Source: Pyrococcus kukulkanii (GTDB lineage Archaea > Methanobacteriota_B > Thermococci > Thermococcales > Thermococcaceae). From it: DNA of 64,000 nucleotides. Below are positions 13,885 to 25,656 of the stretch, in pieces; position 1 is the first letter of the stretch; every line of letters begins with the position of its first letter. The stretch covers positions 1,054,001-1,118,000 of the forward strand of contig NZ_CP010835.1 of NCBI RefSeq assembly GCF_001577775.1, given 5' to 3'. The translations under genes were made by a program, and so were the position numbers. The notes under the pieces were generated by a model that saw only the letters and a program-made list of their open reading frames with translations, searched no databases and was not told the DNA's origin.

Positions 13885-14217
13885 TCAAAGATTTGCCCAA
13901 GGCTCTCTTTGACTTCTATAACCTTTTCTCTCTTGAGTATACCAAAAAGGCTTTTCAAGAACTTTTATCAGGCTTGGTCTTAAGGGTTTCGTTCCAGGAT
14001 AACGCATAACATCGTTATCGGTGATTTTAATGTTGTACTCCATGAAACCACTCCTAATATTAGACGTAATTTGAAGAGCTATAACGGCGTTTGAAATTTT
14101 GTTGAGATTATTATTTGAAGCAATGAGGGCAGGACGAAGTTTTTTGCCAATAAGATCAACGAAGGGGAAATCAAGGAGGACTATCTCCCACTGAAGGAGC
14201 TCATTCCTTTGGTTCAT
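13885..14217 (-). CDS. MazF/PemK-like toxin with frameshifted C-terminus
   Basis: Probable mRNA interferase toxin of the MazF/PemK fold: QWEIVLLDFPFVDLIGKKLRPALI and DNDVMRYPGTKPLRPSLIKV match the family. After LIKVLE the frame appears shifted. The next frame reads KSLFGILKREKVIEVKESLGQIFDL and stop, a more natural MazF end, so one extra base near 13955 probably replaced the last 25 or so residues. The gene overlaps its RHH antitoxin by 17 nt, as usual for toxin-antitoxin operons. Activity of this version is uncertain. Confidence 0.7.
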   Translation of the reverse strand: MNQRNELLQWEIVLLDFPFVDLIGKKLRPALIASNNNLNKISNAVIALQITSNIRSGFMEYNIKITDNDVMRYPGTKPLRPSLIKVLEKPFWYTQERKGYRSQREPWANL

Positions 14218-14470
14218 ATGCTACTCCCTCAATTTCATCCCAGTACTCGTCTGCTTCGCTCTCCCAATCTTCTTTGAGGATTTTTTCAACGCTTTTGAGG
14301 TATCCTATAAGCTCAAAATCCTCTACAACTCTCCTTCGAAGCAGAAAGTCCCTAAGAGCTTCTTTTACTATTTCACTTCGGCTCGAGTAAAGGCCCTCTT
14401 CTATCAGCTTGTCCATTTTCTCCACAAGACCCTTTGGTATCCTCGCTGAAACCTTAACTGTTGTCGCCAT
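14201..14470 (-). CDS. Ribbon-helix-helix (CopG-like) antitoxin
   Basis: The 89-residue protein begins with a ribbon-helix-helix DNA-binding domain (VKVSARIPKGLVEKMDKLIEEG, then SSRSEIVKEALRDFL), followed by an acidic C-terminal tail likely to bind the toxin. It would repress its own operon as a dimer and neutralise the downstream MazF-like protein. ATG 14470 has GAGGGATAG upstream. It is the first gene of the pair. Confidence 0.8.
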   Translation of the reverse strand: MATTVKVSARIPKGLVEKMDKLIEEGLYSSRSEIVKEALRDFLLRRRVVEDFELIGYLKSVEKILKEDWESEADEYWDEIEGVAYEPKE

Positions 14471-17405: not shown

Positions 17406-17421
17406 ATAATAATTTGAATTA

Positions 17422-17439
17422 TGATAATCATGATTATCA
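17422..17439. promoter_or_regulatory. Perfect 18-bp palindrome over the start of the ATPase/DUF234 gene
   Basis: TGATAATCA followed by TGATTATCA is a perfect dyad covering the start codon at 17430. A TATA element (TATATAAATA, 17398-17407) lies about 26 nt before 17430, so the palindrome would sit on the transcript start. This position suits a repressor, possibly autoregulation. Alternative ATGs (17421, 17430) both fall in or next to it. Confidence 0.5.
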
Positions 17440-18749
17440 AATTTGTCGATAGGGAGGAAGAGCTGAAGGCCTTAAGGGAGAGGCTAAATAGCGAGAGGTT
17501 TGAGCTCATAATAATTTACGGGCGGAGAAGAGTTGGCAAGACAAGACTGACACTCGAGGCTATAAAAGGTACGCCTCACGTCTATTACCTAGCAACCGAA
17601 GGCGGCAATCTAAGGCACTTCAAGGCAACGGCAGAGAAAGTGTTTCCCCACATTAAGTACGTCAAAGAAGACTGGGGGGCGCTTCTTCATGCCCTTAAAG
17701 ACAAGGTTGTAGTGATAGATGAATTTCCAAACCTAATAAAGGAAAATCCTGGAATAATCTCGATATTCCAGAGGGTGATTGATCTAGAGCTTCAAAATTC
17801 CAAGACGAAGCTTGTTCTTTTAGGCTCCTCAGTGAGCATGATCAAAGAGAAAGTGCTGAGCTATAAAAGCCCCCTCTATGGGAGAAGAACTGCATCACTT
17901 AGGCTAAGGCCCCTAAGCTTTTTCTCCCTTCGAGACTTCTTCCCGGAAGCGGACACTAGAGAGCTCGTCGAAGTGTACGGACTGACTGATGGAATTCCGT
18001 ACTATATAGCCCAGGTTAAGTTGCCCTTCTGGGAATGGCTTGATGAGGAGATAAAAAGTCCCCTAACCTTTTTCAGGGATGAAGTTGATTTCCTCCTTAA
18101 ATACGAGTTCTCGGAACCAACAAAGTACAGGAGAATCCTCGAGGCAATAGCCTTTGGGAAAACAACCCTCAAACAGATAAAGGACTTTTCCGGCCTGAAG
18201 CATTCAGATATAACACCGTATTTAAGGAATCTCATCGAGACGAATCTCGTTAAGAGGGAAGTTCCGGTAACGGAAAGGCCGACCTCAAAGAAGGGCAGGT
18301 ATTATCTAGCCGACAACTTCCTCGCGTTCTGGTTCAGGTTCATAGGGCCGAACCTGTCTAGAATAGAGGAGGGGACTTTTAGTGCTGAGGAAATCAAGGA
18401 AAGCTATGATAGCTACTTGGGCCAAGTTTTCGAGAAAGTAGCGAGACAGTTCCTCCTAAGGGTAAACAAACAGGGGAAGTTGCCCTTTAAATTCACGAGG
18501 ATTGGAAAGTGGTGGCATAAGGGGGAAGAGATAGATCTAATAGCTTTAAACGATAAGGAGGGGAAGGCCCTCTTCGTTGAGGTCAAGTGGAGGGATCTGA
18601 ACCTGAGAGAGGTGGAGGGTATAATTATGGATCTCAAAAGAAAGAGCGAGCTTACGGGAATTAAATATGAAAAGCACTTCGGAATCATCGCAAGGAAAAT
18701 AAAAGGAAAAGAAAAGCTTGAGTTTGCTTGGGATCTTGAGGATTTTTAA
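17430..18749 (+). CDS. Archaeal ATPase with C-terminal DUF234 (nuclease-like) domain
   Basis: The 439-residue protein has an N-terminal AAA/STAND ATPase: Walker A YGRRRVGKTR near residue 30, Walker B KVVVIDEFPNL, sensor LLGSS, and the GRR/PLYGR segment. A winged-helix region follows (TLKQIKDFSGLKHSDITPYLRNL), then a DUF234 domain with a PD-(D/E)XK-like core (GEEIDLIAL, then FVEVKWR). Such proteins are abundant and mobile in Thermococcales; the cellular role is unknown, with DNA binding and cleavage inferred. It is intact, unlike the other two ATPases in the window. Confidence 0.85.
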   Translation: MIIKFVDREEELKALRERLNSERFELIIIYGRRRVGKTRLTLEAIKGTPHVYYLATEGGNLRHFKATAEKVFPHIKYVKEDWGALLHALKDKVVVIDEFPNLIKENPGIISIFQRVIDLELQNSKTKLVLLGSSVSMIKEKVLSYKSPLYGRRTASLRLRPLSFFSLRDFFPEADTRELVEVYGLTDGIPYYIAQVKLPFWEWLDEEIKSPLTFFRDEVDFLLKYEFSEPTKYRRILEAIAFGKTTLKQIKDFSGLKHSDITPYLRNLIETNLVKREVPVTERPTSKKGRYYLADNFLAFWFRFIGPNLSRIEEGTFSAEEIKESYDSYLGQVFEKVARQFLLRVNKQGKLPFKFTRIGKWWHKGEEIDLIALNDKEGKALFVEVKWRDLNLREVEGIIMDLKRKSELTGIKYEKHFGIIARKIKGKEKLEFAWDLEDF

Positions 18750-18773
18750 ATCCCGCATATTAAGGGAGTATTG

Positions 18774-18822
18774 ATGATGAGTAGTTGGAAAGCTGATGTG
18801 TGATGAGGGACGCCCAGGCTGA
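18774..18822 (+). ncRNA. C/D box small guide RNA
   Basis: All four boxes are in order: C ATGATGA (18774-18780), D' CTGA (18793-18796), C' GTGATGA (18800-18806), D CTGA (18819-18822). Both guides are 12 nt and the D'-C' spacer is 3 nt, a standard archaeal geometry. By the D+5 rule the guides would direct 2'-O-methylation at a C in CUUUCCAACUAC and a G in CCUGGGCGUCCC; the target RNAs are not identified here. A TATA-like TTTTTAAA at 18742-18749 lies about 27 nt before the RNA start. The mature ends extend a few bases beyond the boxes. Confidence 0.85.
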
Positions 18823-18882
18823 TGAACTATCGCGAGAAATTTTTTATATAAAGCTTGACGATAATAATTGAGGTGCATTATA

Positions 18883-19305
18883 ATGCCAAATACACCTCCG
18901 TATGGATACTATAGCTATGGAAGAAGGATTGGTCAAAGGGAAGGATACAAAGCGGGATACAATAGTGGTTACAGAAGTGGATATAGCAGTGGATATGAAA
19001 AGGGGCTTAATGAGGGATACTCCAAGGGATATCAGGAGGGATACAGCAAAGGGTATACGGAAGGGTACAAGAAACATGAAAGCGAAGTTAAACAAATTAT
19101 AAACACGCAGATAAATAAGTTATTATATGAAGATATTTTAGATGAAAATGTTGTTTTAGAGATATTGGATAAAGTATTTTCAATAGGAGGTGTCTCCGGG
19201 GATAAGTTAACTATTGCATTACATGTCTTAACATTGTTACTAGAAGGGGACATATACGGGGCAAAAGTTCTTCGGGAGGTTGCCCAATTATGGGACATTA
19301 TTTAA
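18883..19305 (+). CDS. Protein with 13 consecutive GX3 repeats and a helical C-terminal domain
   Basis: The 140-residue protein has glycine at every fourth position from residue 13 to 61 (13 glycines), mostly as GYxx. A helical C-terminal domain of about 75 residues follows (NKLLYEDILDENVVLEILDKVF, ending AQLWDII). The array resembles the deca-GX3 motif of eukaryotic Yae1/Lto1 adaptor proteins and the GxxxG repeats of FliH, but homology is not established. ATG 18883 has GAGGTG upstream and TTTATATAAA at 18842-18851. It overlaps the next gene by 16 nt, and both are more AT-rich than their neighbours. Confidence 0.7.
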   Translation: MPNTPPYGYYSYGRRIGQREGYKAGYNSGYRSGYSSGYEKGLNEGYSKGYQEGYSKGYTEGYKKHESEVKQIINTQINKLLYEDILDENVVLEILDKVFSIGGVSGDKLTIALHVLTLLLEGDIYGAKVLREVAQLWDII

Positions 19306-20054
19306 ACATTGAAGTAAATGGTAATGATATATACATAGCTGTAAATTTTGGAGGAGAAACAATAAAAGACGTTATCGGGAATTATGAAGTAGATGATTCT
19401 CTTCCCATTTTGAACATCTTCATTAATGATGGCAAAAAGCGCTGTGTTGTTAGCAACTCAAGAGTACCATGTGGATCGCTCCAGGGCAGTGATGTGCTCT
19501 TTAAAGAAGTAATGTCGAGATTTAAGGTTAACCTCCATAAGCTTAAGCTTACAATACTTTCTCCTGAGCTAATAAGGATAATGTTTGATCAACTACCAAG
19601 TAACGAGAAAACGGCTGCAGTATGGTATGTCACAAAAATAAATGATCTTGTTTACGAAGGGCTCGAAGGTTCTATTAAAAGAGCCATGAGGAATGTCGTG
19701 TCATGGGCCCAGGATGAGTTGTCTCAGATAGAATACAAAAACAATAGGGCATACAACACGTTAGAGGAGTACATTTCCAAGATTGAAAAAGAGGCAAGGT
19801 TTCATGACCATATTGCAACTGTTACTGTAACAGAATTTAAGTTGTCCTCAAAAATATATATTTCAGGTAAAAGAGTTAGGGAATTAAACGTTGACATTAA
19901 GATTACCCTGAAGTCAAAAGGATTGCTATCTAAGTTGCTAAAAAAGAATAAGGTCAAGGAGAAACTTGAGAATAACCTTTTGCCAGACTTAAAAAGAGAA
20001 TTGAAAAGCATAATTGAAGGAGATGTTGACTTAACGTATACTATCCTGGCGTGA
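19290..20054 (+). CDS. Unknown protein, partner of the GX3-repeat protein
   Basis: The 254-residue protein is not recognised. It starts with a beta-rich region of about 80 residues ([20 protein letters not shown]), followed by a helical middle part ([45 protein letters not shown]) and a C-terminal alpha/beta segment ending with a long Lys-rich helix and [10 protein letters not shown]. No membrane segment is present. Overlap with the upstream gene implies coupled translation. The 3' end overlaps the convergent UbiD-like gene by 24 nt. Confidence 0.6.
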
Positions 20055-21317
20055 ACTTACTATTTTGGCTTTCTCAAATTTTTCCTTTCTATCAAGAGGC
20101 TTTGTAGCATCTATGCCCCACTTGGCAGTTAATCCATCTTTGCCGGAGGGATCGAGTGAAGATCCTCTCGCGTCTGGAATTACAACGAGATCCCTGTCGG
20201 GCTGGAATCTTGTTGCTATGGCCCACTCAACCTCCCTGTCGTCGTAAATATTAACGTCCTCATCAACTACCACAACCCTCTTCAGGCTCGGGTGGCCCGT
20301 AAAGGCCGCGAGTATAGCGTTCTTTCCGTCCCCTTCATGTTGCTTCGTGATCGAGACTACGGCGTGGAGCCACATGCATCCTCCCTCTGTGAGCCTAACC
20401 CCATGAACCTTTGGAACAACCCTCTTAACGGCTGAATATATTTGGGGCTCCTTTGGAAGGCCCATGAGCATGTAGTGCTCGTAGCCGCCCGGTAAAAGAA
20501 CGTGAAACACGGGATCATCAACGTGATACATCCTCTCGAAAACGACCACGGGCTGCTTTCTCACTATATCGTAAGTTCCCGTTATATCAACAAAGGGACC
20601 TTCATCAACTAGCTCATCTGTGATCTTGGCCCTAAAGACGAACTCGCTCTCGACAGGAACAGGAATCCCATCAACCTCGACAACCTCCACGGGCCTTCCA
20701 AAGGCCTGAAGGCTTATCGCGGAGGCAATCTTGAGCTCGCTAATACCATAGGCAACGCTCGTTGCTCCTGCCAGTAAAAGATGAACAGGATTTCCAACGA
20801 CTATTCTTACATCAAACTCCTCTCCCATCTCCACCGCATCCTTCCACATAGCGTAGAGGTGCCTTGGAACTAGCCTTATCGCTGCCCTTGTCTCGTCAAG
20901 AACCATCATCCTGTGGAAGGAAACGTTAACGAAGTCCCCACTTTTGGCTATGACCATTGCTGAGGTGAAGTACCTCCCTCCGTCTCTAGGGTAAAACTTC
21001 GGGACTGGAAGTTCAAGCAGATTAACCTCGCTTTTGTTCTTCAGAAAATCGGCCTTATCGACAACTACGTAATCCTTAGGCTCCTCCATAGCCTTAACTA
21101 GCAGCTCAAGCAATCCTCTGTTGTCAGTGTTCAGGAACTTGGCTATCCTCTCCCTTTTAGACCAAACGTTCCCTACAACCTTCCAGCCCTCAACGTCCTT
21201 GAAGAGAACTGGCCTGTCTTTGTACTTGAGGAGGTACTTAGTTATCTCGAGCTCCTTTTTTACCGGCTTATCAACAACGACGAGATCATCAAACCCCTCA
21301 ACTATCTCCCTCAGCAT
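20031..21317 (-). CDS. UbiD family decarboxylase
   Basis: Prenylated-FMN-dependent (de)carboxylase of the UbiD family, about 428 residues. Family features: [26 protein letters not shown], the SFHRMMVLD segment, the [10 protein letters not shown] region, [15 protein letters not shown] with [12 protein letters not shown], and [27 protein letters not shown] near the end. The substrate cannot be told from sequence (aromatic acid or polyprenyl-hydroxybenzoate-like). ATG 21317 is preferred because GGAGG lies about 9 nt upstream; the in-frame ATG at 21326 is too close. It overlaps pus10 by 20 nt. Confidence 0.88.
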
Positions 21318-23551: not shown

Positions 23552-24351
23552 AGGAAACGATAATTGTTGTGCACGAAAGGCCCGACATTTACGACCCGAT
23601 CTTTATAGAGGGCCTTCCTGGGATTGGTTTAGTTGGAAAGCTTGCTGCTGAGCACTTGATTCAGGAGCTGGGGGCGAAGAAGTTTGCCGAGCTTTACTCT
23701 CCTCACTTCATGCACCAAGTGCTGATTAGGAAAGGTTCAATAGTTGAGCTCATGAAGAACGAGTTCTACTACTGGAAGAGCCCTGACGATGAGCACAGAG
23801 ATCTTATAATAATAACGGGAGATACCCAGGTGCCCCCAACTGACAGCTACGGCCACTTTGAAGTAGTCGGGAAGATGCTCGACTTCGTTCAGGAGTTCGG
23901 GACGAGGGAGATAATAACCATGGGGGGCTATCAGGTTCCAGAGTTGCAAGGAGAGCCCAGGGTCTTAGCGGCGGTAACTCATCCAGATCTCGTGGGCTAT
24001 TATCAGGAGAAGCTCAAGGACTGCAACGTTGAGGTGATATGGAGAGAAGACGAGGGAGGAGCTATAGTCGGTGCAGCGGGCCTTCTTTTGGGAATAGGAA
24101 AACTGAGGGGAATGTTCGGGATAAGTCTCCTGGGGGAGAGCTTGGGTTACATAGTTGACGCCAAGGCCGCAAAGGCAGTCCTGTCCGCTGTGGCTAAGAT
24201 ACTCAACCTCGAGATAGATATGACGGCCTTGGACGAGAGGGCCAAGGAGACTGAAGAAATCTTAAGGAAGGTAGAAGAGATGCAGAGGGCAATGATGGAG
24301 CAGCAGCTTCCAAGGCCAAGCCACGAGGAGGAAGATAGGGGCTACCTCTGA
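23548..24351 (+). CDS. PAC2 family protein (proteasome-assembly-chaperone type)
   Basis: The 267-residue protein belongs to the PAC2 family, which includes archaeal PbaA/PbaB proteasome assembly chaperones: DPIFIEGLPGIGLVGKLAAEHLI at the N-terminus, LIIITGDTQVPP, and ITMGGYQVPELQGEPRV, plus a C-terminal helix. It overlaps nop10 by 4 nt (ATGA), the usual archaeal gene order. Whether it is the PbaB chaperone itself or a paralogue cannot be settled by eye. Confidence 0.85.
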   Translation: MKETIIVVHERPDIYDPIFIEGLPGIGLVGKLAAEHLIQELGAKKFAELYSPHFMHQVLIRKGSIVELMKNEFYYWKSPDDEHRDLIIITGDTQVPPTDSYGHFEVVGKMLDFVQEFGTREIITMGGYQVPELQGEPRVLAAVTHPDLVGYYQEKLKDCNVEVIWREDEGGAIVGAAGLLLGIGKLRGMFGISLLGESLGYIVDAKAAKAVLSAVAKILNLEIDMTALDERAKETEEILRKVEEMQRAMMEQQLPRPSHEEEDRGYL

Positions 24352-25656
24352 TCTTCTTCTATTAATTTTAAGCTTAATAACCACTTCCACAGCGGAATGA
24401 ACTCTACCTTCTTTCTCCCATAAACTTCAACTGCCTCATAGTCCCACGTGATGACCTTGAGGTTGTTGCATCTCAGCTCTTTTGAGGCCCTCAACAATGC
24501 CTCGACTTCTCTCTTTTTGACATCTGGTTCATCAACACTATAGGACACTTGGATCAGCTCTTTAACCCTGAATCCCAGGGAAATTACAAAGTCAACTTCC
24601 CCTTTGGAGTCCATCCAGTAGCTCACGCTCAATCTTGGTTCGCGGTAGTGCTTTCTCCTTAATAACTCGATAGCTACCATGTTCTCAATCCTGTAACCAA
24701 TATTCCCTATTCCAAAAACTGATGCAAAGCCGACATCAGCAATGTAAAGCTTAGGGATGCTTCTAATGGACTCAATCTCGCTGAAGTGAAACCTCCTCAC
24801 TGGAAACACGAAGCCTATGTCCTCAAGATATGAGAAGTACTCATAAACCTTGCTTTTGCTTAGATTTAGGCCGAGTGAAGACAGCATTCCATGGAGCTTT
24901 CTTATGGAGAGCCTTCTCGCAAAGTTTTTTGTTATAATGCGTATGAGGCCTTTCATTGCCCCAGTTTTTTCTATCCCATACCTCTCGATTAAGTCTTTGT
25001 ACATTATCAGATCGAGGTACTCTTGGAGGATTCTTATCTTGAGGAGCGGAGGGACATCAATAAGCTCAGGGAATCCTCCGTATTTAATGTACTCTTCGAG
25101 ATATCGTCTAATTAATCCCCGCTCCCGCTCTATCAACGGTTTATTTATTTGCACACCTTTGAAATGCAAAAATTCGGCGAATGACAACGGGAAGAGTTCA
25201 AAGCTGAGGCTACGTCCCCTCAGTGCCGTTGCTATTTCCCTTGATAAGAGCTTTGAAGATGAACCCGTGATAAAGATGTGTGCACTTTTTCTCTCAATGA
25301 GGCGTCTTACAAAGAGCTCCCATCCTTTAACAACTTGAACTTCGTCTAGGAAAAGGTACATCTTTTTGGCATTGGAATTGTGCTTGTAGTACAGCTCCAC
25401 GATCCTCCCAAGATCTTGAGCCTTTAATCCGGCCAGCCTTTCATCCTCAAAGTTGATGTAGAACAGCCTTTCTACTTGGTATTCCCTTTCTAATCAGCTC
25501 AAGCATTGTCTGGTATAGGAGGTATGTTTTACCAGATCTTCTAAGACCGTAAACGATCATCGCTCTTTCAAGGTTAGTTGGAAGTTTAAGCTCCCTCTCT
25601 TTAACCTCGGGAATGCCGAGCTTGTGGAACTCGATGATGACTTCTTCAATGTCCAT
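24342..25656 (-). pseudogene. AAA ATPase with DUF4143 domain, split by a frameshift
   Basis: Two frames encode one ATPase of about 435 residues. The first (from 25656 to about 25480) holds Walker A GLRRSGKTYLLY. After IPSR the reading moves to another frame: ERLFYINFEDERLAGLKAQDLGRIVELYYKH, then Walker B MYLFLDEVQVV, sensor FITGSSSKLL, GRSLSFELFPLSF, and a C-terminal DUF4143-type region with DSKGEVDFVISL. One base inserted or lost near 25485 explains the break. ATG 25656 has GGTGA upstream. The later half could still be translated from GTG 25400 but would lack the P-loop. Confidence 0.78.

What the first reader, a model, noticed from the sequence alone, without database searches (positions are those of the whole stretch)
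18883..20054. Two-gene unit: 13-fold GX3 repeat protein plus an unknown partner
The first protein has glycine at every fourth residue from 13 to 61, mostly GYxx, followed by a helical domain. The second overlaps it by 16 nt and matches nothing I know. GX3 arrays of this kind occur in Yae1/Lto1 (deca-GX3) adaptors and in FliH, where they mediate protein contacts. The unit is more AT-rich than its neighbours and sits next to a C/D sRNA and an archaeal ATPase gene, so it may be a mobile accessory system.
Basis: partly seen in the sequence, partly recalled or inferred. Interest (0 to 1): 0.65.

Follow-up and report, generated by a model that had tools for sequence, protein, structure and literature searches.

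The report
Species-specific glycine-repeat gene pair in Pyrococcus
A heat-loving archaeon carries a small inserted two-gene unit, found in no relative examined, that encodes a glycine-repeat protein (probably a self-pairing helix) and an unrecognisable partner; it is a real accessory insertion, but what it does is unknown.

Summary
Window 18883-19305 encodes a 140-aa protein with 13 glycines spaced exactly four apart (residues 13-61; 10 of 13 units are GYxx). A 254-aa ORF, 19290-20054, overlaps it by 16 nt. The pair is AT-rich (third-position GC 0.34-0.37 against 0.54-0.62 in neighbours) and lies beside the C/D sRNA sR30.

The pair forms a ~1.24-kb insertion with its own promoter-like sequence, set exactly between sR30 and the end of a ubiD-family gene. 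Three other Pyrococcus genomes show the empty site. A fourth has an unrelated 2.1-kb beta-propeller gene there, so the junction has received accessory DNA at least twice. No integrase or transposase is present. The DUF234 ATPase next door is an older, separate arrival, not a partner.

The partner has no detectable relative in 396 genomes sampled across archaea, or in the viral, phage, plasmid and genome collections searched. The GX3 array resembles FliH and Yae1_N, but membership in neither is shown. Best reading: a horizontally acquired accessory operon whose GX3 helix self-associates and whose C-terminal domain engages the partner. The complex itself is inferred. "Mobile system" is only partly supported, and pairing cannot be tested by co-occurrence because n = 1.

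The parts
18770..18824 (+). C/D box sRNA sR30; left border of the insertion (box D CTGA at 18819-18822)
   Evidence: Rfam RF01134, 52.2 bits, gathering score 38; same sRNA abuts ubiD in G004, G005, G006
18823..20060 (.). AT-rich insertion between sR30 and ubiD, absent from all other Pyrococcus held; right border uncertain by a few bases (20057-20060)
   Evidence: blastn of the window against syntenic loci: 18823 joins 20061 within about 0-3 bp in G006 and G005; junction sequences
18840..18877 (+). TATA-like element TTTTTTATATAAAG and Shine-Dalgarno-like GAGGTG upstream of the first gene, inside the insertion
   Evidence: Sequence read directly; consensus only, not tested
18883..19305 (+). GX3 protein, 140 aa: 13-fold GX3 array (residues 13-61) followed by a predicted helical domain (about 65-140); no membrane helix
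   Evidence: Yae1_N 26.8 bits, cut-off 27.5; partial FliH matches, best E 7.3e-12 but 45 bits against a cut-off of 180; all-helical low-confidence model; hydropathy
19290..20054 (+). Partner ORF, 254 aa, no recognised family; 16-nt overlap with the GX3 gene
   Evidence: no relatives; low-confidence mixed alpha/beta model with a long central helix
20031..21326 (-). UbiD-family decarboxylase gene; its normal stop is lost and the frame now runs about 9 codons further, overlapping the last 24 nt of the partner gene
   Evidence: Pfam UbiD_N, UbiD, UbiD_C; C-termini compared: KARL/KAKL-stop in relatives against [13 protein letters not shown] here
17421..18749 (+). Neighbouring ATPase_2/DUF234 gene; not part of the unit
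   Evidence: present without the pair in G003 and G006, absent next to sR30 in G005 and G004

Best explanation
A horizontally acquired, species-specific two-gene accessory operon sits in a small insertion hot spot between sR30 and ubiD. The GX3 protein forms a glycine-faced helix that pairs with a second copy of itself, as proposed for FliH and Yae1/Lto1. Its C-terminal helical domain holds or delivers the co-translated 254-aa partner, so the two act as one cytosolic complex, probably derived from a virus or plasmid. Shown: the insertion, the array, the overlapping gene order, foreign composition, absence of detectable relatives. Inferred: horizontal origin, helix pairing, the complex with the partner, the viral or plasmid source.
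For: Insertion and empty sites. A different gene at the same junction in G003. 16-nt overlap with Shine-Dalgarno-like motifs in front of both ATGs. Run of 13 against a shuffle maximum of 7 in 100,000. x1 is Tyr in 10 of 13 units, as FliH repeats favour Tyr/Phe at x1 (over 45%, PMC2674601). x3 of the last seven units alternates K/E (K,E,K,E,K,E,K), which would place opposite charges four residues apart on a helix. The model is mostly helix over the array, at low confidence. Foreign composition. No relatives of the partner. GX3 arrays with polar spacers also occur in viral contigs (L039, L068, L123, L131).
Against: No structure of useful confidence (pLDDT 54 and 45). No co-occurrence evidence for the pairing. 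A virus or plasmid source is a guess: no hit in phages, plasmids or viral contigs. AT-rich orphan genes can also arise or diverge in place. x3 of the array has Glu/Gln/Ala in only 5 of 13 units against about two thirds in FliH.
Confidence: 0.42

Rival explanations
1. The GX3 protein is an adaptor for a host NTPase encoded elsewhere, as FliH is for FliI and Yae1/Lto1 for the ABC protein Rli1, and the downstream ORF is only loosely related in function.
For: Both known GX3 adaptor systems serve an ATPase (PMC4523923; PMC2674601). In four Thermococcaceae genomes a membrane protein is encoded directly before a tubulin/FtsZ-like GTPase; three of the four carry a GX3-type tail after the membrane helix.
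Against: The adjacent ATPase is not linked. Neither protein has a C-terminal tryptophan like that of Lto1, and the matches to FliH models are mainly to the repeat.
Confidence: 0.2
2. A decayed fragment of a larger virus or plasmid, with the two ORFs being leftover structural or host-takeover genes that no longer have a role in the cell.
For: AT-rich orphan pair in an insertion without mobility genes; GX3-rich ORFs occur in viral contigs.
Against: Both ORFs are intact, the borders are tight, and promoter-like and Shine-Dalgarno-like motifs are present. No viral or plasmid relative was found.
Confidence: 0.2
3. A two-gene defence or toxin-antitoxin type unit: one protein harmful, the other restraining it through the GX3 helix.
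For: Small overlapping operon, foreign composition, insertion hot spot.
Against: No match in PADLOC, no nuclease, NTPase or toxin family recognised. Gene sizes and order alone are weak evidence.
Confidence: 0.1

Closest known systems
FliH (flagellar export) GxxxG repeat segment
   Same: Long soluble GX3 array with Tyr/Phe favoured at x1, predicted helical and thought to mediate dimers (PMC2674601); profile matches over the array
   Different: Matches are centred on the repeat (45 bits against a cut-off of 180); no FliI or flagellar context, x3 rich in K/S rather than E/Q/A, 13 glycines in a row where m in FliH varies on average between 2 and 10
Yae1 / Lto1 deca-GX3 adaptors (Yae1_N, PF09811)
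   Same: GX3 array that scores at the edge of the Pfam cut-off (26.8 against 27.5; 27.8 in frame)
   Different: Described in yeast and human (PMC4523923); no C-terminal Trp, partner is not a GX3 protein, 13 rather than 10 units
GX3-tailed membrane proteins next to tubulin-like (FtsZl1) genes in Thermococcaceae
   Same: GYxx-type array, gene directly followed by a second gene
   Different: Signal-peptide-like start, ectodomain, coiled coil and membrane helix; partner is a ~1,130-aa protein of the tubulin superfamily; no homology detected outside the array
GX3-rich ORFs in phage and viral contigs
   Same: GYxx-containing arrays of 8-24 units
   Different: Different flanking sequences, no gene like the partner found

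Membership tests
FliH | GxxxG repeat segment, AxxxG(xxxG)mxxxA | tested here: met
   13 consecutive GX3 glycines; the flanking Ala at Axxx/xxxA positions are lacking, but PMC2674601 says not all FliH have them
FliH | Conserved C-terminal domain / whole-protein model score | tested here: not met
   Best NCBIfam FliH model 45.3 bits against a cut-off of 180, matched residues 13-72
FliH | Genomic link to FliI or flagellar export genes | tested here: not met
   Neighbours are ATPase_2/DUF234, sR30 and ubiD
Yae1/Lto1 | Yae1_N profile above Pfam cut-off | tested here: inconclusive
   26.8 against 27.5 bits on the protein; 27.8 in the six-frame search; no other genome of the phylum passes
Yae1/Lto1 | C-terminal Trp (Lto1) | tested here: not met
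   GX3 protein ends LWDII (Trp fourth from last); partner ends YTILA
Yae1/Lto1 | Binding of Rli1/ABCE1 and the CIA targeting complex | not testable with these tools
   Needs biochemistry
Mobile genetic element | Own integrase, transposase or replication gene | tested here: not met
   Insert holds only the two ORFs; the partner has no family match
Mobile genetic element | Precise insertion with empty sites in relatives | tested here: met
   Empty sites in G004, G005, G006
Mobile genetic element | Terminal repeats or target duplication | tested here: inconclusive
   6-bp TGAACT at both ends (18823 and 20052), no terminal inverted repeat of 8 bp or more
Known anti-phage defence systems | Match to a PADLOC model | tested here: not met
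   No family at E up to 5

The most novel reading that the evidence does not exclude
The pair is a previously undescribed two-protein system carried between Thermococcales as a cassette, with a GX3 scaffold and a partner of a new fold, acting in virus-host conflict or as an assembly adaptor.
Probability: 0.12. Interest if true: 0.6.

Novelty: new variant of a known kind. Interest (0 to 1): 0.3.

Why it matters
Long glycine-repeat helices were noted as extremely rare outside FliH, and how they pack was left open (PMC2674601). A 13-unit soluble array from an organism growing best at 105 C (PMC5313631) would be a stable subject for structure work. The sR30-ubiD junction also gives a small, clean case of repeated accessory-gene insertion beside a C/D sRNA gene. 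Beyond that, it is one of the roughly 400 species-specific genes without known function in this genome (PMC5313631).

Tried and rejected
Link to the adjacent ATPase: rejected by synteny. FliH or Yae1 membership: not accepted. Foldseek on the partner model: top PDB matches were OsmC and KH-containing proteins at E about 0.1 or worse on a pLDDT-45 model; discarded as meaningless. Pfam weak matches for the partner (Alpha-amy_C_pro E 0.035, KH_DEAH11 E 0.4) and PHROG 10031 (E 0.005): not followed, below any useful threshold. Recent tandem duplication of the array DNA: units share 3-9 of 12 bases and the array scores only 48 in TRF, so it is not a fresh DNA repeat expansion.

Full report
Where it is. 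The window is 1054001-1118000 of a single 1,977,126-bp chromosome. That size is exactly the one reported for Pyrococcus kukulkanii NCB100 (PMC5313631), so the organism is almost certainly that one.

The observation. The first ORF (18883-19305, 140 aa) has glycine at residues 13, 17, 21 ... 61, thirteen in a row at spacing four. Shuffling the same residues 100,000 times never gave more than seven. Ten of the thirteen units are GYxx. The second ORF (19290-20054, 254 aa) starts 16 nt inside the first. A TATA-like element and a GAGGTG motif precede the first ATG and a GGAGGT motif the second (read). Third-position GC is 0.34 and 0.37 against 0.54-0.62 for neighbours. The DNA of the array is not a fresh tandem expansion: 12-bp units share 3-9 of 12 bases.

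The insertion. Comparing the window with stretches around ubiD in seven other Pyrococcus genomes shows sR30 directly abutting the 3' end of the ubiD-family gene in G004, G005 and G006, with nothing in between. In P. kukulkanii about 1.24 kb lies between them, from just after box D of sR30 (CTGA, 18819-18822) to about 20057-20060. In G003 the same junction holds an unrelated 2.1-kb gene on the other strand, a 677-aa beta-propeller protein. The junction has therefore taken accessory DNA at least twice. In P. kukulkanii the ubiD stop codon is lost and the frame runs about nine codons further. A 6-bp direct repeat, TGAACT, lies at both ends (18823 and 20052). It is suggestive only, and there are no inverted terminal repeats and no mobility genes. 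sR30 itself is placed elsewhere in G001, G002 and G007. The ATPase_2/DUF234 gene on the other side of sR30 is present in G003 and G006 without the pair, and absent beside sR30 in G005 and G004, so it is a separate, older accession.

Relatives. The partner has none: not in 115 genomes of the phylum (a few sub-threshold matches with E 0.02-0.07 only), not in 396 genomes sampled across archaea in 216 genera, not in genome contigs, viral contigs, phages or plasmids, and no PDB sequence. The GX3 protein matches other archaeal proteins only through the array. Single-sequence searches miss very distant relatives, and only one genome per species is held, so "no relative" means none at this sensitivity.

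What it resembles. Pfam Yae1_N scores 26.8 against a cut-off of 27.5, 27.8 in the six-frame search. The best NCBIfam FliH model matches residues 13-72 with E 7e-12 but reaches only 45 of 180 bits. The FliH repeats described in PMC2674601 favour Tyr/Phe at x1 (over 45%) and Glu/Gln/Ala at x3 (about two thirds). Here x1 fits strongly (10 of 13 Tyr), while x3 fits less (5 of 13). In the last seven units x3 alternates K, E, K, E, K, E, K, which on a helix would put opposite charges four residues apart; with this composition the alternation has a chance of about 1 in 35, so it is a hint only. The Lto1 C-terminal tryptophan is missing. The protein uses the same kind of motif; membership in either family is not shown.

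How it probably works. The array is predicted helical with low confidence. By analogy with FliH (proposed dimer) and Yae1/Lto1 (mutations of the glycines weaken the complex; PMC4523923), the glycine face likely lets two helices pack closely. The C-terminal helical domain would then be free to bind the co-translated partner. That partner has a predicted strand-rich start, a long central helix and a strand/helix C-terminus, but at pLDDT 45 this is only a sketch. No function can be read from it. I put 0.42 on the pair being an acquired operon whose products form one complex, and less on each rival.

A side finding. The other GX3 arrays that the genome search found in Thermococcaceae are tails of a membrane protein, after its membrane helix, in G022, G093 and G111. 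In all three the gene is directly followed by a tubulin/FtsZ-superfamily gene, whose open frame is about 1,125 aa where complete. The one further genome with that gene, G001, also has the membrane protein directly upstream (37% identical to the G093 protein over 223 aa, E 2e-34), with a much shorter glycine tail. The tubulin-like protein resembles the kind described as FtsZl1 in PMC2875224, whose alignment includes P. abyssi; G001 has the size of that genome by my recollection. The GX3-tailed neighbour may be its membrane anchor; this was not pursued further.

Noticed in passing
L003:568-3116, L004:1-2607, L353:2-2531, L363:1-3804 (genomes G093, G022, G111, G001): A rare two-gene unit in Thermococcaceae (4 of 94 genomes): a membrane protein with a signal-peptide-like start, ectodomain, coiled coil (three of four) and a tail after its membrane helix, GX3-type in three of four, followed directly by a tubulin/FtsZ-like gene of about 1,125 aa. 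The tail may recruit the GTPase to the membrane.
   Followed up: partly
window 18819-20060 and L013:4284-6380: The sR30-ubiD junction is a small insertion hot spot: two unrelated accessory inserts in two of five Pyrococcus genomes that share the junction, immediately after a C/D sRNA gene.
   Followed up: partly
window 17421-18749: ATPase_2/DUF234 gene is itself an accessory gene on the other side of sR30: in G005 and G004 the DUF371 gene abuts sR30 directly.
   Followed up: partly
window 13885-14470 (-): Ribbon-helix-helix / PemK-MazF-like toxin-antitoxin pair (Pfam RHH_1, PemK_toxin).
   Followed up: no
window 24342-25400 (-): AAA_14/DUF4143 ATPase ORF starting at GTG and lacking the N-terminal part of the AAA_14 profile (matches profile 54-129 only); possibly truncated or mis-started.
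   Followed up: no
L357:1135-1779 (-), genome G331: A 214-aa archaeal protein with an N-terminal hydrophobic stretch, a long GX3 array and a C-terminal domain, adjacent to a gene that looks like an Obg/Drg-type GTPase (not tested); another GX3 protein next to an NTPase gene.
   Followed up: no
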